Origin: a virus | Reading direction: 5' to 3' (one strand) | IMG/VR virus record: IMGVR_UViG_3300028189_000042 | Coordinates: 1 to 30,515 of that record | DNA: 30,515 bases | Part shown: one piece after another, positions 1 through 15,636 of the stretch | Numbering within the stretch: the stretch's first letter is position 1 | How the letters are laid out: every line of letters starts with the position of its first letter | Program-made: the position numbers and the translations under genes | Notes under the pieces: generated by a model | Told to the model about the DNA's origin: nothing | What the model saw: the letters and a program-made list of their open reading frames with translations, nothing else | The model's database searches: none

Positions 1-438
1 ATTATTGCAAGATACGATCCTGAAACAGAATCCCCAGAAATTAATAGTCGTAAGTATGCTTTTTTTGAGCATATTTTTGATAGGTTTTGTAGAGAAAATA
101 AAATTGATTATAAAAGAATACTGAGAATGAATTTAAACTTCACTTCTCATTTCGATTCTGAATTTTTTGGTCAACCTCACGCAGACCACGATATCCCACA
201 CCAAACGATGGTTATGTACCTTTATGGAAATTCTGGGAATACAGTTTTATTTGATGGAAAATATACTCCTAATAGTGGAGAATTAACTTACACTAAAGAA
301 AACTTAAAAGTGGCAAAAGAAGTTGAACCGGAAGTCGGAAAGGTTATTTCTTTTGATGGGATGACGTTTCATACTATACGACCACCTAAAATTAATACTT
401 CTAGAATTATCTGCGTATTGACATATGAGTTAAAATAA
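1..438 (+). CDS. 2OG-Fe(II) oxygenase, 5'-truncated by the window edge
   Basis: The reading frame is open from the first base (codon 1 at position 1) to a TAA at 436-438, so the true start lies outside the window; the ATG at 127 is internal. The visible 145 residues carry the C-terminal jelly-roll of a 2-oxoglutarate/Fe(II) dioxygenase of the prolyl-hydroxylase type. There is an HxD iron-binding pair in QPHADHD, a strand resembling 'YLYGNSGNTVLFDG', a distal histidine in FDGMTFHTIRPP and an arginine in TSRI suited to bind the 2OG carboxylate. The HAD (not HAG/HxG) motif argues for a hydroxylase rather than a non-haem halogenase. Family members use O2 and 2OG to hydroxylate proteins or small molecules; the substrate here is unknown. 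The gene overlaps the halogenase start by one base (TAATG), suggesting coupled translation. Such oxygenases are common in T4-like marine phages. Confidence 0.82.
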   Translation: MIARYDPETESPEINSRKYAFFEHIFDRFCRENKIDYKRILRMNLNFTSHFDSEFFGQPHADHDIPHQTMVMYLYGNSGNTVLFDGKYTPNSGELTYTKENLKVAKEVEPEVGKVISFDGMTFHTIRPPKINTSRIICVLTYELK

Positions 439-1904
439 TGAAAAATATATTGGTAGTGGGTAGTGGGTCTGCTGGATTAATCGCAGCAACTATCCTAAAG
501 AAAAGGTTAAACGTACAAGTAGACGTATTATCATCTAGTGGTCTAGACATCATTGGTGTCGGTGAAGGATCAACTACTGAGTTCTTTGAATATATGAAAT
601 TCATCGGGATTACCGATAGTGATATAATTAAAAATTGCGGTGCGACTTATAAGTCTGGAATAATGTTTGAGGGTTGGAACGATAAGAAAGATTTTTTACA
701 TACTGCTTCCGTAGATTTTTTTAGCACTTGGGGGCAATATTATCACGCAATGGCAAAGCAAATATCCGACGAATCAGATTTTGTATGCCCTCAACATTTC
801 TATAATAATGCATTAGACGAACAATACGTGTTTGATAATATTCGTAGAGTAAAACATCACCCACAAATAACACAATACCATTTCGATAGTTATAAACTTA
901 ATAAATTTTTAATAGACATATCTAAAGGTATGGGAATTAATTTTATAGATGATAAGATACAAAAAGTTAATCTATCAGATGATGGTAATATAAAAACGTT
1001 AATGGGTGAAGTTGATGAGTACGACTACGATTTTTATATTGACGCAACTGGGTTTAAGAAAATACTAATAGGTGAAATGGGCGCTGAGTGGAAATCGTAT
1101 GGCAAGTATCTTAAAATGAATTCTGCCATAACGTTTGAAACTGAGCAAGAAGATAATTATAATATTTGGACACTATCAAAAGCAATGGATGCTGGGTGGT
1201 TGTTTAGAATACCAGTACAAGGTAGGTATGGTAATGGTTATATCTTTGATGATAATTATATCGATGAAGAGCAAGCAAAGGTAGAAGTTGAAAAATATTT
1301 CGGCAAAGAAATAAAGGTAGGAAAGAAATTCAAATTCGATCCTGGATGTTTAGATAAATCGTGGATAAAAAATTGTTGTGCGATCGGTTTGAGTAGTTCT
1401 TTTATAGAACCCTTAGAAGCGACATCTATTGGGTCTAGCATACAGCAGACATTTATGCTGATGCAGAAATTGCCAAATTATAATGAGGTGGTTATAGAAA
1501 GTTATAATAAGTCTTTTGATTCTTTAATGGAAAACCTAAGAGATTTTGTCGTTATGCATTATGTGACAAATAAAACAAATACTCAATTTTGGAAAGACGT
1601 TTCAAAATTAGAATTACCAAAAACTTTAAAAGATAGGTTAGAATTGTGGAAACATAAAATGCCAGTAAGTGAAGATATGATTGAGGAATCTGATTATACC
1701 CTATTTAAAGAATATCATTATATAATAGTTATGCATGGTTTGGGGTTGTTCGACACGAAATCTATCACTGAAGAATTTAATATGCATTCCGACGAATTGA
1801 AAGAGGATGCTATTAAAGTGGTAGATCGTTTAGTCGAAATGGAAAAGACGACTCACCTAATGAAGCATATTGATGCTATCAATTTAATATCAAATGCGAG
1901 ATGA
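438..1904 (+). CDS. flavin-dependent (tryptophan-type) halogenase
   Basis: The 488-residue product matches the flavin-dependent tryptophan halogenase family (PrnA/RebH-like). Visible signatures are the FAD-binding GSGSAG at residues 8-13, GVGEGST at 40-46, and a lysine (K72, in ATYKSGI) at the place of the catalytic lysine that carries the hypohalous intermediate. A FIEPLEATS segment around 322-330 contains the glutamate (E327) equivalent to PrnA Glu346. The WxWxIP signature is degenerate: residues 253-259 read GWLFRIP, with Phe for the second Trp. Family members use FADH2, O2 and halide to halogenate aromatic substrates, and need a reductase, not visible here. A cyanophage member (VirX1 from Syn10) has been reported to be an iodinating enzyme, so the substrate should not be assumed to be tryptophan. 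It shares TAATG with the oxygenase and ATGA with the downstream methyltransferase; no separate ribosome site is visible. Confidence 0.9.
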   Translation: MKNILVVGSGSAGLIAATILKKRLNVQVDVLSSSGLDIIGVGEGSTTEFFEYMKFIGITDSDIIKNCGATYKSGIMFEGWNDKKDFLHTASVDFFSTWGQYYHAMAKQISDESDFVCPQHFYNNALDEQYVFDNIRRVKHHPQITQYHFDSYKLNKFLIDISKGMGINFIDDKIQKVNLSDDGNIKTLMGEVDEYDYDFYIDATGFKKILIGEMGAEWKSYGKYLKMNSAITFETEQEDNYNIWTLSKAMDAGWLFRIPVQGRYGNGYIFDDNYIDEEQAKVEVEKYFGKEIKVGKKFKFDPGCLDKSWIKNCCAIGLSSSFIEPLEATSIGSSIQQTFMLMQKLPNYNEVVIESYNKSFDSLMENLRDFVVMHYVTNKTNTQFWKDVSKLELPKTLKDRLELWKHKMPVSEDMIEESDYTLFKEYHYIIVMHGLGLFDTKSITEEFNMHSDELKEDAIKVVDRLVEMEKTTHLMKHIDAINLISNAR

Positions 1905-3250
1905 AAATAATAAAACTCGACAAAGAGTTATTTGAATATTATGATAATCATTCAGTTGGCGGAATTCCTTTACTAAACGAAAAAGAATTCAAATACGTTA
2001 CAGACACATACGGTAAAGATCTAGCAAGATCCACGTTAGCAAATTATATTGCTAATTCCGATACGCAATACCCAATAACAGGAACTGACCACGTAGGAAT
2101 GATTAAAACTTTTCATAAGTTGAGGATGTCAGATTATTCTAAAACCTTAACTCCATCCGATGAATTGAATCCTGATGATATAGTAGAAAAGCACGAATAC
2201 AAATATACATTTAAGGACTATGGTTTGGGGTTGATTGATGCCCATTCAATTTTTAATCCTGCTAGTGGGTACTTCATGAACAAAGAAAGAATTGAATGTT
2301 CAGTCCCTACTCGTTTATCGCCTGCCGATATTTGGAGAAGCACTAATCCTAAAGATACTTGGGATTGTTTTGGTGCGTTGTGGCGTGGCGTCAATAAGTG
2401 TCATTATGACGATGATGGTAAAGTAATTAGTGGTGAAATAAATATACAAAGTTATTTGGTTGCCATGAGACTTGGTTCTTATGTAGCAACCCAATTCAAA
2501 CCTAACGTAGCACGTTCAGTATATGAAATGACCAAAGCGGATAAAGTATTAGATACTTCTATGGGTTGGGGAGATAGGATGTGTGGTTTTATGGCATCTA
2601 ATGCTAAAGAGTATATCGGTTGCGATCCTAATCCTAATACATTTAAGATATATAAGACTATGGCAGTTGAGTATTCAAAACTTATTGGTGATAAAATTTT
2701 AGACATTGTTGATGAAGAACATTATTATAAACAGATTGGTACTAAAAAGGTATTAACTTTTTATAGAAGTGGCGCTGAGGATATACCTTGGGAAGATATT
2801 AATGAGATAGATTGTGCCTTTACATCACCACCATACTTTTCTACAGAGTTATACAATGAGGGTGGTGAACATGAAGATGATCAATCATGGTCTAAGTTTA
2901 GTGAATATAATTCTTGGAGAGATAACTTCTATTTACCAGTTTCTAAAAATAGTTTTAATGCCCTAAGTGATAGGGGGTTTTTAATGATTAATATAATGGA
3001 TCCTACTATTAAAGGTGAACGATATTATTCGTGTGACGAATTAGTAGATTCTTTAAAGGATAATTTTATAGGGCAAATTGGCATGAGGATTATGCAAAGA
3101 CCTCACGGTAAAAGTAAATTTACCCCAGAAGAATTAAGAGAATATTTAAAGAAAACCTATATGGAAAATGTATGGGTGTTTAGTAAGGGCAACGGTTTGG
3201 ATCTATTCAGGGATGCCAGAACAAGTACATTAGAAAGTTTTTTTAATTAA
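1901..3250 (+). CDS. SAM-dependent methyltransferase with SPPY motif (probable DNA methylase)
   Basis: The 449-residue protein has an N-terminal region of about 200 residues that I do not recognise, then a class I methyltransferase fold. A SAM-binding motif I lies at 218-225 (DTSMGWGD), an acidic/proline segment CDPNP at 241-245, and the catalytic motif TSPPY at 308-312. SPPY-type motifs are typical of amino-methyltransferases acting on N4-cytosine or N6-adenine in DNA. A C-terminal ENVWVFSKGN strand is also usual for the family. It overlaps the halogenase by four bases (ATGA), the third member of a tightly coupled trio. It could protect phage DNA from restriction or methylate another substrate; no cognate restriction enzyme is present. 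The next element downstream is a promoter, so the transcription unit probably ends near here, though I see no clear terminator hairpin. Confidence 0.8.
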   Translation: MKIIKLDKELFEYYDNHSVGGIPLLNEKEFKYVTDTYGKDLARSTLANYIANSDTQYPITGTDHVGMIKTFHKLRMSDYSKTLTPSDELNPDDIVEKHEYKYTFKDYGLGLIDAHSIFNPASGYFMNKERIECSVPTRLSPADIWRSTNPKDTWDCFGALWRGVNKCHYDDDGKVISGEINIQSYLVAMRLGSYVATQFKPNVARSVYEMTKADKVLDTSMGWGDRMCGFMASNAKEYIGCDPNPNTFKIYKTMAVEYSKLIGDKILDIVDEEHYYKQIGTKKVLTFYRSGAEDIPWEDINEIDCAFTSPPYFSTELYNEGGEHEDDQSWSKFSEYNSWRDNFYLPVSKNSFNALSDRGFLMINIMDPTIKGERYYSCDELVDSLKDNFIGQIGMRIMQRPHGKSKFTPEELREYLKKTYMENVWVFSKGNGLDLFRDARTSTLESFFN

Positions 3251-5209: not shown

Positions 5210-5485
5210 ATGGATTTAAAACCATTACACGATAGAGTTATCGTTAAAGTAGAAGAAACTGAAAACACAACTGAGTCTGGGTTAATCTTAACTCAAACTG
5301 CTCAAGACAAATCTAATAGAGGTATGGTAGTTGCTGTTGGTCCAGGTAAGTATGAGTATGGTGCTTGGATTGAGATGACTGTTAAAGCAGGTGATACCGT
5401 TATGTTTGAATTAGCACAAGCAACAAATATGGAATCTGACTATATGGTTATGCGTGAGTCAAACATCATTGCTGTTATTGGTTAA
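5210..5485 (+). CDS. groES: co-chaperonin GroES (Cpn10)
   Basis: The 91-residue protein begins MDLKPLHDRVIVKVEE, the canonical first strand of GroES. It has the mobile loop (ESGLILTQ, residues 22-29) with a hydrophobic triplet suited to contact GroEL, then RGMVVAVGPGKY, AGDTVMFE and a closing strand ESNIIAVIG. The start at 5210 is chosen because AGGAGA (5198-5203) stands 6 bases upstream; the ATG at 5180 would place the terminator inside the gene. GroES caps host GroEL; T4 encodes a functional replacement, gp31, to fold its major capsid protein. This phage seems to carry a true GroES homologue instead, but whether capsid folding is its job is inference. It lies between the replication module and the tail operon, and its stop overlaps the convergent stop of the ATP-grasp gene (TTAA, 5482-5485). 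Confidence 0.93.
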   Translation: MDLKPLHDRVIVKVEETENTTESGLILTQTAQDKSNRGMVVAVGPGKYEYGAWIEMTVKAGDTVMFELAQATNMESDYMVMRESNIIAVIG

Positions 5486-6807
5486 GACAAAGTATATTTC
5501 AACTCTGGGTCAATAATAAGACTGTTGTTAATCATAAATTCTTTATTACAAAGGACATCAGTCTTTTTAATCCTATTGTCTAAGGTGAATTGAATATTCT
5601 TATGGATAATATCATTAAACTTAACATCTAAAAGAATAACAGGTCGTTCTTCTGAATGACTGTTACCACCAGTTATGATACTCTTCATTTCAACCACTGG
5701 TGCTCTATAAATTTTACCTCTAAACTTCCACGTAACTTTTTTATTATCATCAGATAATTTAATATCATCACCGTGAATAACAGATGCTTGGGAACTATTA
5801 CCAGTGTCCATTTTACTATCTAATTTAGCACCAAATAGTGGGAAGAAGAAATGTTCCTTAACACCAATAGTAATTTTAGGTAAATTCCAATTCTCTTTAT
5901 TAGAGATGTATTCAACCACCACCTTATTAAGATTGGTACCAGTTGTACCTTCAATTCCTTCTGTGCCTGCAGATGAGTTTACTTCGATAACAAGAGGATT
6001 ACCATTGTTAGGAATAAAATCAACACCAGTCCAATATCCACCCACTGCCTTTGCTGCATTGAGAACCGTTTCTTTTTCTTTCTCTGATAACTCATATTTC
6101 TCTGTTGTCGCACCTTGGGAATAATTAGAACGGAAGTCTTTCTTAGGAACGTTCCGTCTCATAGTTCCGATAATCTCATCATTAAGAACCATAACTCTTA
6201 CATCAAATTCAGACTTAATAAATTCTTGTAATAACAAGTCTACATTCTCATCCATTTTATATAGTAATTGAACCAATGCTTCTAATGATTGTAAAGACTC
6301 AACCATCATTACACCCACACCTTGAGTACCACGAAGTGTTTTTAAGATGACTGGGAATTTAGTTTCTAGTTTTTCAAATGCCTTTTCTGCATAGTTTATT
6401 TCTTTATCCTTACCAACAGATATAAGAACAGTTTTGGGTTGTTCAATCTCTGCGGATTTTAAGGTTAAGAATGTTCTATACTTATCAGTACATATCTCAG
6501 TAGTTTCCCTTGAGTTTACACATTGAATGCTTAATTGCTCAATTTGAGATAATAAGTCTAAGTATGAATCTTTAGATGTTATACTTGCACGTGAGGTGAC
6601 GATTGTATCAGACTTATGTATCTTAAAACCTTTATCATCATCAATGTTATGTATTAAATCTACACCATCTTTCTTAGATACATAAGCACCCTCAAGATTT
6701 ACAATATAAGTTTTACCACCCAATTTGGTATTTTCTTTTTCAAGTCGTTCAACGGTATTAAAATTTTTACCATTATCGAGTTCTTTTGTTAGTATTACTA
6801 AATTCAT
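5482..6807 (-). CDS. RimK-like ATP-grasp ligase fused to retropepsin-like (PF05618-type) protease
   Basis: The 441-residue protein has two parts. Residues about 1-305 look like a RimK/glutathione-synthetase ATP-grasp ligase: K156 with glycine-rich LRGTQGVGV (158-166), hinge QEFI (194-197), DVRVMV (202-207), the basic MRRNVPKKDFRSN stretch (216-228), and metal ligands D263, E275 and N277 in GVDFIP...VIEVNSS. Residues about 318-441 match the retropepsin-like family often called 'ATP-dependent zinc protease' (PF05618), with the aspartyl-protease triad D334-T335-G336 followed by S-x-x-I-H-G. RimK-type enzymes add glutamate or other amino acids to protein C-termini or side chains; the peptidase partner is usually a separate neighbouring gene. 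This gene is the last of the minus-strand tail operon, only 2 bases after the tape measure stop, so a virion protein is a plausible substrate (inference). No Shine-Dalgarno is visible. Confidence 0.85.
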   Translation of the reverse strand: MNLVILTKELDNGKNFNTVERLEKENTKLGGKTYIVNLEGAYVSKKDGVDLIHNIDDDKGFKIHKSDTIVTSRASITSKDSYLDLLSQIEQLSIQCVNSRETTEICTDKYRTFLTLKSAEIEQPKTVLISVGKDKEINYAEKAFEKLETKFPVILKTLRGTQGVGVMMVESLQSLEALVQLLYKMDENVDLLLQEFIKSEFDVRVMVLNDEIIGTMRRNVPKKDFRSNYSQGATTEKYELSEKEKETVLNAAKAVGGYWTGVDFIPNNGNPLVIEVNSSAGTEGIEGTTGTNLNKVVVEYISNKENWNLPKITIGVKEHFFFPLFGAKLDSKMDTGNSSQASVIHGDDIKLSDDNKKVTWKFRGKIYRAPVVEMKSIITGGNSHSEERPVILLDVKFNDIIHKNIQFTLDNRIKKTDVLCNKEFMINNSLIIDPELKYTLS

Positions 6808-6809
6808 AA

Positions 6810-8765
6810 TTAATTAAATGCAGGCTGGGCGTTATTTCCAAATCCTGCAGTAGGATCCGTTTTTGTTCTACCAGCAGTTGCTTTTGGCATGATGGCATTA
6901 CTGGTACTACTAACGGTTGTAGATGCGTCAGTCATACTATTATTTGGTGCAGAGATAACTACTGGTGCACTACTCGATTGCGCAACTGCTTTTGATTGAG
7001 CATCTATTGCAGAACCATCACCATTCAACCCAATCATTTTACCAAATCTGCCAAGATCTCTGCCTTGCTTCGCACGACCGATTAATCTTATTCTATCTCT
7101 TGCCTTCAAGCCTCTAATATCTTTGATTTCGTCTTCAGTGAAACCAAGATCAATTAACTCTTGGAATTTCTTATATTCCTTAATATCTTCTTCTGGGTCA
7201 AAATCAATACCAGAATTTCTATTCATTTGTGCTGCACGAATATCAGCATCTCTTTCATATTGGAGAGTATTGCCCATAGCATCTGTGTTGATTAAATTAC
7301 CAAAATCATCAGTATCACCATCAAAGGTTTGAACGCTGGAGAATTTTTGCTTAGGTTTGACTATTGCACGTGCAGCAGATGGTTCTTCTTCATCAAAGAA
7401 ACCTAGTTTTTCTGTTATGAAATTTCTAGGGATTAATGATTTGAAGTCGAAGTTCGCAATACTATCAAACACTTCAGTAAACCATTTGAAGATAGAATCA
7501 ACTGCATCCCGTATGACTTTCATCAAATCAAATTCAGGTGCATCTTCTTCTTTCCAACTAAACAATTCCATAACCCAATCAATTGCTTTACTAATAGGGG
7601 TAAATATTATTGTATCAAAAATCCCACCTTCACCATATATTCCATTGAATAAATCTTTCATTGCACCAATGGGGTCGTCAAACAACTTCATCACCCAATC
7701 AATCGCAGCACTAATACCTTTGAATAGACCGTCCATCATATCAGACCATAGTTTGGAGAATGAAAAGTTTTTAACTGCGTCAGACGTTTCGTCAAACCCC
7801 ATCTTACCGAGTAACCAAGCAATAGCATCTTTAATCATATCAAAAGGTTTCATAAACAACTCATCAACCAATACAGTGATAGTAATTTTAAGACCTTCTA
7901 ATATATTACCATCAGTAAATGATTGTAAAGATTCTTTAATTGCTTTAAAACCCGCAAACATAATACTAATTGGCCAGAACCATCTAGTGGCGAAACCACT
8001 AATCTTTGTAAACAATGCACCGAATGCTTTGAATTGACCACCGATCATTGAGAATGTAGATTTAATACTAGAACCCAATTTTGATATTGTCGTTACTGAT
8101 TTGCTGACACTTGAACCAAGTGCCTTTACTTCCGTGAAGAAAGTTTTGAGTGTTGTTATGAATTTAGAATTTGTTATCTTAGAAACAACACCTGCTAATT
8201 TACCAGCACCAGTCTTTAATACATCAAGGATCTTGGTGTTCCAACCTTTCACAGACTTTACTGCAGCATCTAGACCAGCAGTTATCTTAGCAAATTTACC
8301 TGATGAAGTAATACCAAGCATCTTACCAACTGCTTTAGTAAGTCCTAATGTTAAGTTCGTCAAACCTTTTGTTGCCTTACCAACACCTGATGTCCAAGCA
8401 CCTACTGAACCAGCTGCCAAACCTAATGCCACAGCCAAACCTCCTGCTACTAAACCTATTCCGTCTGAAGATTCTCCATCCTTTCCACCTTTACTTTTAC
8501 CACCACCTTTACTATCAGACTGTGCTGCAAGTTTATTTGCCAACTCTCTTGCATTTTCCGAATCAATACGATTTTTCTCTGCAGTCATTTTCCTAATATC
8601 CGCAAAGATAAAAGTGAGTGACTTTATAGAATCTGATACCGCACCAAGACCAGTAGTGACACTATCATCTAAACGTTTATTAGATTTCTCATTAGCATTT
8701 TTCGATTCTTGAATCGCAGTGACTACTGGTAGGTTTGCGGCTTTTACGTCTTTATCTGTTGGCAT
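6810..8765 (-). CDS. tail tape measure protein (gp29-like)
   Basis: The 651-residue protein has the composition of a tape measure: a helical, Lys/Ser/Asp-rich N-terminus and a Gly/Lys linker (about 85-100). A hydrophobic Gly/Ala stretch (about 102-127), long amphipathic helices, a second hydrophobic segment RWFWPISIMFAGF (261-273), and a disordered Ser/Thr/Ala tail follow. ISAAIDWVMKLF (351-362) recurs 40 residues later as ISKAIDWVMELF (391-402), an internal repeat usual for length-setting proteins. In T4 the tape measure (gp29) sits in the hub and sets tail length; at a typical 1.5 angstrom per helical residue the size fits a T4-like tail. It lies after gp26 and gp51, the hub assembly genes, and its start overlaps gp51 by 14 bases. 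I could not recognise residue-level similarity to T4 gp29, so the name rests on composition and context. Confidence 0.75.
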   Translation of the reverse strand: MPTDKDVKAANLPVVTAIQESKNANEKSNKRLDDSVTTGLGAVSDSIKSLTFIFADIRKMTAEKNRIDSENARELANKLAAQSDSKGGGKSKGGKDGESSDGIGLVAGGLAVALGLAAGSVGAWTSGVGKATKGLTNLTLGLTKAVGKMLGITSSGKFAKITAGLDAAVKSVKGWNTKILDVLKTGAGKLAGVVSKITNSKFITTLKTFFTEVKALGSSVSKSVTTISKLGSSIKSTFSMIGGQFKAFGALFTKISGFATRWFWPISIMFAGFKAIKESLQSFTDGNILEGLKITITVLVDELFMKPFDMIKDAIAWLLGKMGFDETSDAVKNFSFSKLWSDMMDGLFKGISAAIDWVMKLFDDPIGAMKDLFNGIYGEGGIFDTIIFTPISKAIDWVMELFSWKEEDAPEFDLMKVIRDAVDSIFKWFTEVFDSIANFDFKSLIPRNFITEKLGFFDEEEPSAARAIVKPKQKFSSVQTFDGDTDDFGNLINTDAMGNTLQYERDADIRAAQMNRNSGIDFDPEEDIKEYKKFQELIDLGFTEDEIKDIRGLKARDRIRLIGRAKQGRDLGRFGKMIGLNGDGSAIDAQSKAVAQSSSAPVVISAPNNSMTDASTTVSSTSNAIMPKATAGRTKTDPTAGFGNNAQPAFN

Positions 8766-8919
8766 TTTGTTCTTCTTGTTCTTCTAAATAGTTCTTTAAA
8801 AATGTAACGTATATATCTCTCTCAAAAGGTATCATATTATCGAGTTCAGTTAAAGAATATTTATGATGTTGCATTAATGCGAAATTCATTTGATACATGT
8901 TCAACAACGAATCATGCAT
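8752..8919 (-). CDS. 51: baseplate hub assembly catalyst gp51
   Basis: A 55-codon gene fills the space between gp26 and the tape measure. Its core YSLTELDNMIPFERDIYV (residues 21-38) is the hallmark of the small gp51-like proteins of T4-like phages (a tyrosine, L/M, aspartate, then P-F/W-ERDIYV). An acidic Glu/Gln tail follows. In T4, gp51 is needed for hub assembly but is not found in the finished hub. The ATG at 8919 starts six bases after the gp26 stop at 8925, and the gene ends inside the tape measure start, a normal operon arrangement and one that resembles the chaperone/tape-measure pairing in other phage tails. It is short enough to be missed by ordinary length cut-offs. Confidence 0.85.
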   Translation of the reverse strand: MHDSLLNMYQMNFALMQHHKYSLTELDNMIPFERDIYVTFLKNYLEEQEEQNANR

Positions 8920-14509: not shown

Positions 14510-14698
14510 ATGCCATTACCAGGAAGCAATAGAAACCCAGTGTTTCTACAAGAGATTAAAGAACCTACACACGAAGAACCAAACTACAACAGCATGACTA
14601 AGAAAGCAATTGTTGAGTATGGTAAAGACAACGGTGTAAACTTAGATTCAAAAAGGACTAAGAAGCAATTAATTCAGGAATTAATGCAAGCAATGTAA
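14510..14698 (+). CDS. small protein with SAP/Rho-N-like helical motif, before gp5
   Basis: A 62-codon gene with an excellent AGGAGA ribosome site (14499-14504) and an overlap of its stop with the gp5 start (TAATG). The last 35 residues (from MTKKAIVEYGKDNGVNLD) have a helix-turn-helix-like pattern of the SAP/Rho-N kind (A-I-V-E-Y-G ... L-D-S-K-R-T-K-K-Q-L-I-Q-E-L) that is common in small phage proteins. I do not know the function; the position suggests it serves gp5/gp27 spike assembly or DNA-tail contact. Confidence 0.65.
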   Translation: MPLPGSNRNPVFLQEIKEPTHEEPNYNSMTKKAIVEYGKDNGVNLDSKRTKKQLIQELMQAM

Positions 14699-15636
14699 TG
14701 AGAAACTTTATAGGCAACAATGGTCTCATTTGGTTTGTTGGAGTCGTTGAAGATAGACACGACCCGATAGAACTCGGTCGCGTGCGAGTAAGAGCATTCG
14801 GTTGGCATACTGACGATAAAGCAAAGATCCCTACTGAGGAATTACCTTGGGCAATACCTATGTCTGGAATAGACTCTGCTTCTGTTAGTGGAGTAGGTAA
14901 GTCTCCAACTGGAATGGTAGAAGGAACTTGGGTGTTTGGATTCTTTATGGATGGGAAACGTGCTCAAGAACCTGCTGTTATAGGAACTATTGCTACCATG
15001 CCTTCCGAAAAAGCAGACGTAGTTAAAGGGTTTAACGATCCTAACGGTTTATATCCCAGATACACTGATGAGAGTGATGTAAACAAATTAGCACGTGGAC
15101 TCAAAGAACCGAAGCATATTTCCGATGAAATTAAAAACGACTTCTCTGAAATTAAAGAACCTGCTGAACCATTTGCTGCAAAGTATCCTTACAATCATGT
15201 TACAGAAACTGAGTCTGGTCATATTAAAGAATATGATGACACTGCTGGAAAGGAACGTATTAGGGAGTGGCATAAGACTGGAACGTTTTATGAGATACAT
15301 CCGGATGGAACTAAAGTAGAACACATTGTTAAAGACAATTATCAAATAATTGCTGGAAATAATGCTATCCACGTTAAAGGTAATGTAGATGTCTTCATTG
15401 ATGCAAATACTAATATAACTGTATCTGGAAACTTAACTGCATTAGTTAAAAAGAATGCCGACATTACTATCAATGAAAATTTGACTGCATTGGTAAACAA
15501 GGATGCTAAGATAACGGTTGATGGAAATACCACTCTTAAAGTCGGTAAGAATTTTGATGCAAGTATAGGTGGCACTTGTACGATGAAGAGTGGTGGTAAT
15601 ATGAAATTCACCGCACCTAAGATTGACATCAACTAA
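14698..15636 (+). CDS. 5: baseplate central spike gp5, without a lysozyme domain
   Basis: The 312-residue protein has an N-terminal OB-fold (about 8-100: WFVGVVEDRHDP, RVRVRAFGWHTDD, GTWVFGFFMDG, EPAVIGT), a linker with GLYPRY and DVNKLARG, the PYNHVTETESGHIKEYDDT motif of gp5/VgrG proteins (164-182), and a C-terminal beta-helix of short VxGN/VxKN repeats (about 208-312). T4 gp5 (575 residues) carries a lysozyme between OB-fold and helix; no such domain is present, so this spike is a pure piercing needle. The start overlaps the 62-residue gene, and the end overlaps the PAAR gene. The helix repeats show as imperfect DNA repeats, for example around 15430-15510. Confidence 0.87.
   Translation: MRNFIGNNGLIWFVGVVEDRHDPIELGRVRVRAFGWHTDDKAKIPTEELPWAIPMSGIDSASVSGVGKSPTGMVEGTWVFGFFMDGKRAQEPAVIGTIATMPSEKADVVKGFNDPNGLYPRYTDESDVNKLARGLKEPKHISDEIKNDFSEIKEPAEPFAAKYPYNHVTETESGHIKEYDDTAGKERIREWHKTGTFYEIHPDGTKVEHIVKDNYQIIAGNNAIHVKGNVDVFIDANTNITVSGNLTALVKKNADITINENLTALVNKDAKITVDGNTTLKVGKNFDASIGGTCTMKSGGNMKFTAPKIDIN

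What the first reader, a model, noticed from the sequence alone, without database searches (positions are those of the whole stretch)
5482..6807. ATP-grasp ligase fused to a retropepsin-like protease inside a phage tail operon
One polypeptide holds a RimK-like amino-acid ligase (K156, D263, E275, N277) and a DTG aspartyl protease (D334-G336, followed by an IHG). In bacteria these families are usually separate neighbouring genes. The join to the tape measure gene (2 bases) and the tail-assembly strand suggest that a virion protein, perhaps the tape measure or a hub protein, is tagged with amino acids and trimmed or processed. A writer-and-eraser of protein tagging in a virion is, as far as I know, not established.
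Basis: partly seen in the sequence, partly recalled or inferred. Interest (0 to 1): 0.78.

Follow-up and report, generated by a model that had tools for sequence, protein, structure and literature searches.

The report
Phage RimK–RimB protein-tagging fusion enzyme
A marine phage gene encodes one enzyme with two halves, one of a kind that adds glutamate tails to proteins and one of a kind that cuts them off; this fusion was already reported in ocean phages in 2008, and its place beside a tail gene in this window is a local oddity that does not show it modifies the virus particle.

Summary
Window 5482-6807 (minus strand, 441 aa) is a RimK-type ATP-grasp ligase (PF08443, 2.5e-43) fused to a C-terminal PF05618/RimB-type retropepsin domain. 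That domain alone scores 30.9 bits (cut-off 27), and its predicted fold matches RloA/DUF785 crystal structures, then HIV protease. Catalytic residues are invariant in 20 relatives. The fusion is not new: Monier et al. 2008 described RimK with C-terminal DUF785 in T4-like marine phage contigs, and Little et al. 2025 showed that RimB, including the RimB part of a bacterial RimB-RimK hybrid, removes the poly-glutamate that RimK adds to ribosomal protein S6. The virion-tagging inference rests on tail linkage, which is not conserved: 77 of 101 related loci have replication-module neighbours, typically clamp loader-regA-[gene]-DNA polymerase; only this lineage (window plus an identical fragment) has it in the tail operon. 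Most likely it adds and removes glutamate on a host protein, S6 being the leading candidate. Unexpected lead: most relatives, but not this copy, carry an N-terminal peptide matching the mapped T4 capsid-targeting sequence, so in those phages the enzyme may be packaged and injected.

The parts
5482..6807 (-). RimK-RimB fusion gene, 441 aa, ATG start, no N-terminal extension
   Evidence: no in-frame start upstream of the ATG
5905..6489 (-). RimK-like ATP-grasp domain, residues 107-301
   Evidence: PF08443 2.5e-43; TIGR00768 165.7 bits against cut-off 143.4; fold closest to RimK crystal structures
5494..5865 (-). PF05618/RimB-like retropepsin domain, residues 315-438
   Evidence: domain alone 30.9 bits against cut-off 27; profile match to 9g59 at 5.9e-8; fold match to 2pma, 9g58, 9g59, then HIV protease
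5800..5808 (-). DTG catalytic motif, residues 334-336
   Evidence: invariant in 20 relatives, aligned with DTG of RloA2
6810..8765 (-). 651-aa putative tape measure gene, 2 bases upstream; context only
   Evidence: no Pfam match; partial homology to a Melnitz hypothetical protein
5210..5485 (+). GroES-like co-chaperonin gene, convergent, overlapping the 3' end of the fusion gene by 4 bases; context only
   Evidence: PF00166 5.6e-26; sequence read

Best explanation
A phage-encoded RimK-RimB fusion. [quoted passage not shown] the retropepsin half, as a homodimer, cuts poly-glutamate tails and may also stimulate the ligase. The most likely target is the host translation machinery, with ribosomal protein S6 the leading candidate, so that translation is shifted towards phage messages. 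Shown here: two domains, both folds, conserved catalytic residues, replication/regA placement in most relatives. Inferred: glutamate as the added residue, the dimer, a host target, S6 itself. In this lineage the gene lies behind a tail gene, so it is probably expressed late; its biochemical function is inferred to be unchanged.
For: Domain and fold assignments. Invariant catalytic residues of both halves. R388 and R412, which by my mapping of the alignment correspond to poly-Glu-contacting R114 and R137 of RloA (PMC12239564), are invariant. RimB removes glutamates from S6 and a RimB-RimK hybrid is proteolytically active (PMC11957791). Relatives sit beside regA, a translational repressor, and DNA polymerase; 8 of these loci also carry phage ribosomal protein S21, and viral bS21 is known to enter ribosomes (PMC6375957).
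Against: The protein does not reach the S6-specific ligase model (106.6 bits against 331), and the tetrahydromethanopterin ligase model scores higher (134.9, also far under its cut-off of 350). The third poly-Glu contact, the Lys after DTGA, is Ser338 here. The bacterial RimBK hybrid did not glutamylate the S6 tested. The host is unknown and its S6 was not examined. The window copy is not in the conserved context.
Confidence: 0.5

Rival explanations
1. The enzyme tags and trims a virion protein, such as the tape measure or a hub protein.
For: Two-base join to the 651-aa gene and same strand as the tail genes.
Against: The tail position occurs in a single lineage; most relatives have replication-module neighbours. 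No substrate-like glutamate tail was noticed: the 651-aa protein ends ...GFGNNAQPAFN.
Confidence: 0.12
2. The ligase half makes free poly-alpha-glutamate or joins glutamate to a small molecule or a non-ribosomal protein, and the protease half recycles or edits the product.
For: RimB stimulates poly-alpha-glutamate synthesis by RimK, and the hybrid tested did not modify S6 (PMC11957791). Family models for other acceptors score as high as or higher than the S6 model.
Against: All equivalog models are far under cut-off; gene neighbours in relatives point to translation and replication, not to a cofactor pathway.
Confidence: 0.25
3. The protein is a protease-only or degenerate relic: one half has lost activity and the other acts alone.
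For: Lys after DTGA replaced by Ser338; the bacterial hybrid showed protease but no S6 ligase activity; Melnitz and cyanophage RimKs lack the protease half.
Against: Catalytic residues of both halves are invariant across 20 relatives and both folds are confidently predicted.
Confidence: 0.1

Closest known systems
Marine T4-like phage RimK with C-terminal DUF785/PF05618 (Monier et al. 2008, PMC2530865)
   Same: Same two domains in the same order, in T4-like marine phage contigs; the regA/PolB context is shared with the window's relatives
   Different: The window copy lies in the tail operon, beside a putative tape measure gene
RimK and RimB of Pseudomonas (Little et al. 2025, PMC11957791)
   Same: RimK-family ligase and DTG retropepsin acting on poly-glutamate
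   Different: Separate genes in a rim operon; S6 as substrate is shown there and not here
RimBK hybrid of Desulfotalea psychrophila (PMC11957791)
   Same: Ligase and retropepsin in one polypeptide
   Different: Protease domain at the N-terminus; here it is at the C-terminus
Pelagibacter phage Mosig gene Mosig_00005 (QOI68969.1), annotated putative glutathione synthetase
   Same: 42% identical over the full length, both domains
   Different: Between regA and DNA polymerase genes, with a capsid-targeting-like N-terminal extension
Yersinia phage YerA41 protein YerA41_066 (QSM00767.1), annotated structural protein
   Same: 34% identical over residues 59-436, both domains
   Different: Next to ribonucleotide reductase genes; annotated as structural in a phage whose virions were analysed by LC-MS/MS
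Cyanophage 'ribosomal protein S6 glutaminyl transferase' (S-CAM8, S-RIM8, S-RIM12, S-RIM32)
   Same: RimK-like ligase in marine T4-like phages
   Different: Ligase only, 296 aa, about 27% identical, no capsid-targeting-like motif

Membership tests
RimK family alpha-L-glutamate ligase | Match above curated cut-off to PF08443 and TIGR00768 | tested here: met
   148.3 bits against 21; 165.7 against 143.4
RimK family alpha-L-glutamate ligase | ATP-grasp catalytic residues K156, D263, E275, N277 | tested here: met
   invariant in 20 relatives
RimK family alpha-L-glutamate ligase | RimK fold | tested here: met
   Foldseek best matches are RimK structures, TMt 0.82-0.87
S6-specific ligase (NF007764, PRK10446) | Score above the equivalog cut-off | tested here: not met
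   106.6 bits against 331
RimK family alpha-L-glutamate ligase | Ligation of glutamate to a protein C-terminus | not testable with these tools
   needs an enzyme assay
PF05618 / RimB retropepsin | Score above the Pfam cut-off | tested here: met
   domain alone 30.9 bits against 27; whole protein 26.4
PF05618 / RimB retropepsin | DTG motif and retropepsin fold | tested here: met
PF05618 / RimB retropepsin | Poly-Glu-contacting residues shared by RloA and RimB (K46, R114, R137 of RloA) | tested here: inconclusive
   two arginines invariant (R388, R412), the lysine replaced by Ser338; mapping is mine and the text
PF05618 / RimB retropepsin | Homodimer and poly-glutamate cleavage | not testable with these tools
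   single-chain models only; needs an assay
RimBK hybrid (Little et al. 2025) | RimB domain N-terminal to RimK | tested here: not met
   order is reversed here (paper)
Marine phage RimK-DUF785 (Monier et al. 2008) | PF05618 on the C-terminal side of the ATP-grasp domain, in a T4-like marine phage | tested here: met
   paper
Marine phage RimK-DUF785 (Monier et al. 2008) | regA/PolB neighbourhood | tested here: not met
   window copy is in the tail operon; met by L001, L002, L016 and most relatives
T4 capsid-targeted internal protein | N-terminal capsid-targeting sequence in the window protein | tested here: not met
   protein starts MNLVILTKEL
T4 capsid-targeted internal protein | N-terminal capsid-targeting-like sequence in relatives, with T4 IPIII spacing | tested here: met
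   70 of 99 loci, 24 of 38 representatives; background; T4 positions
T4 capsid-targeted internal protein | Cleavage by the prohead protease and presence in the head | not testable with these tools
   needs virion proteomics

The most novel reading that the evidence does not exclude
Across most of this abundant marine phage family the RimK-RimB enzyme is packaged in the capsid by a T4-type capsid-targeting sequence and injected with the DNA, so that host proteins (probably the ribosome) are glutamylated or deglutamylated at the start of infection. The window's lineage would then lack packaging and have the gene in the tail operon instead.
Probability: 0.4. Interest if true: 0.65.

Novelty: new member of a known kind. 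Interest (0 to 1): 0.34.

Why it matters
The fusion itself is known, so the window adds one more member in an unusual place. Whether phages rewrite ribosome glutamylation, and whether they inject the enzyme to do so, can be tested directly.

Tried and rejected
Megablast of 10 kb around the gene against phages found nothing. TATAAATA late-promoter-like sites are no more frequent than chance, so timing of expression could not be settled. The genome-contig scan returned six short contigs of metagenome-assembled genomes, probably phage contigs placed in bacterial bins; not taken as evidence of a cellular origin. Iyer et al. 2009 on ATP-grasp amidoligases is not in the library, so it was not used. 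Considered and rejected: that the capsid-targeting-like motif is a by-product of overlap with regA, since its core residues lie beyond the overlap and non-overlapping loci (L096, L018, L005, L049, L045) keep it. Also rejected: that the C-terminal half is a chance match.

Full report
What is there. Window 5482-6807, minus strand, encodes 441 aa. Residues 107-301 match PF08443 RimK at 2.5e-43 and residues 315-438 match PF05618 at 7e-6. In the whole protein PF05618 is 0.6 bit under its curated cut-off, but the C-terminal domain alone reaches 30.9 bits against 27, and all 20 relatives examined match. A profile of the C-terminal domain finds the retropepsins RloA2 (9g59, 5.9e-8), Lpg0085 (2pma) and RloA (9g58), with the DTG motifs aligned. 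AlphaFold2 models are confident (pLDDT 86 for the protein, 90.6 for the domain). The whole model is closest to RimK, including the RimK-RpsF complex; the domain is closest to 2pma, 9g58 and 9g59 and then to HIV protease. K156, D263, E275, N277 and D334-T335-G336 are invariant in 20 relatives.

The phage. The window is a 30.5 kb virus record of a T4-like myovirus: head closure, DNA end protector, tail tube, gp26-like hub, baseplate wedge and cap proteins, gp32-like SSB and gp59-like loader. Its 1662-aa structural protein is closest to those of Pelagibacter phages Mosig and HTVC008M.

Is the tail link meaningful? The gene starts 2 bases after the stop of a 651-aa gene that is a plausible tape measure by position but has no Pfam match and only partial homology to a Melnitz hypothetical protein. 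Of 101 loci with a homologue, 77 have replication-module neighbours, typically clamp, clamp loader, regA, [gene], DNA polymerase. The closest homologues in other phages, L001 and L002 at 66% identity, have it between regA and DNA polymerase. Only the window and L003, a fragment 100% identical to it, have it in the tail operon. The tail position is thus an oddity of one lineage and gives little support to a tail-protein substrate. Probable co-transcription with the tail genes suggests late expression here, but the late-promoter-like pattern is not above chance.

What it most likely does. [quoted passage not shown] a bacterial RimB-RimK hybrid is proteolytically active, although it did not glutamylate the S6 tested (PMC11957791). 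RloA enzymes of the same fold cleave poly-glutamate (PMC12239564). By my mapping, two of the three poly-Glu contacts shared by RloA and RimB are invariant here (R388, R412) and one is replaced (Ser338). The protein passes the RimK-family cut-off but not that of the S6-specific model, so glutamate ligation is likely while S6 is only the leading candidate. The recurrent neighbour regA, a translational repressor, and phage ribosomal protein S21 in 8 loci favour translation as target; viral bS21 is known to enter ribosomes (PMC6375957). Monier et al. already proposed that phage RimK might act on translation.

An unexpected lead. Most relatives begin with a peptide such as MKAPKFREFITEA, MQVQPFKNYLEEA or MKIPKFNEFLTEQ. 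For T4 internal protein III, residues 4 and 7 govern capsid targeting and residues 8 and 10 processing (PMC9026906). The relatives show [FY]xx[FY][LI]xE, the same spacing; that T4 has Tyr, Phe, Ile and Glu at those positions is from my own knowledge. The motif is in 70 of 99 loci and 24 of 38 dissimilar representatives. Background: the strict form occurs in 6 of 350 other ORFs of the same loci and at 0 of 1439 internal methionines; in Mosig the fusion is the only match among 176 ORFs, against 1 of 656 internal methionines. Loci L022, L048, L059 and L084, which lack the regA context, place the gene among other proteins with such N-termini. Overlap with regA does not explain the motif: its core lies beyond the 14-23 base overlap, and non-overlapping loci keep it. 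A two-domain homologue in Yersinia phage YerA41 is annotated as a structural protein, and that phage's virions were analysed by LC-MS/MS (PMC7354516), though many enzymes were found there too and I could not see the supplementary table. The window protein and its well-supported four-row clade lack the peptide, so the injection model is for the family, not for this copy. The replication-module location of most copies is a point against packaging, since T4 internal proteins are head components.

Novelty. Monier et al. 2008 (PMC2530865) already described T4-like marine phage RimK with C-terminal DUF785/PF05618, and regA and PolB neighbours. The window gene is a new member of that kind with an unusual location. 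I found no report, in the library searched, linking this family to capsid targeting; absence from that library is not proof.

Limits. No activity, substrate, host or expression was tested. The tree has long branches, and gain or loss of the N-terminal peptide is not resolved at its base. The loci returned are the best-scoring 80 of at least 567, so the proportions describe near relatives only. The record covers part of a genome, so a second copy elsewhere cannot be excluded.

Noticed in passing
window 438-1904 (with 1-438 and 1901-3250): Tryptophan-halogenase-like gene (PF04820, 3.1e-92) preceded by a weak 2OG-Fe(II) oxygenase-like ORF and followed by a gene with a DNA-methylase-like C-terminal part; an unusual cluster for a phage.
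   Followed up: partly
window 8752-8919, minus strand: Small ORF of about 55 aa between the gp26-like gene and the putative tape measure gene, read by eye; in Mosig the same place holds a 44-aa 'baseplate hub assembly catalyst'.
   Followed up: no
window 14698-15636: Hub protein matching phrog_430 'baseplate hub subunit and tail lysozyme' is only 312 aa, so the lysozyme part may be missing.
   Followed up: no
L022, L048, L059, L084: Clusters of otherwise unrelated proteins with capsid-targeting-like N-termini (DUF6267, zeta-toxin-like kinase, cytidylyltransferase-like), possibly a set of injected proteins.
   Followed up: partly
L001 5032-6450: UvsX/RecA-like ORF with an in-frame insertion that looks like an intein (CVVAGTEIQTIDG...HNTG).
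   Followed up: no
L017 82-1131 (Melnitz phages): RimK homologue with the capsid-targeting-like N-terminus but no protease domain, in the same regA-polymerase position.
   Followed up: partly
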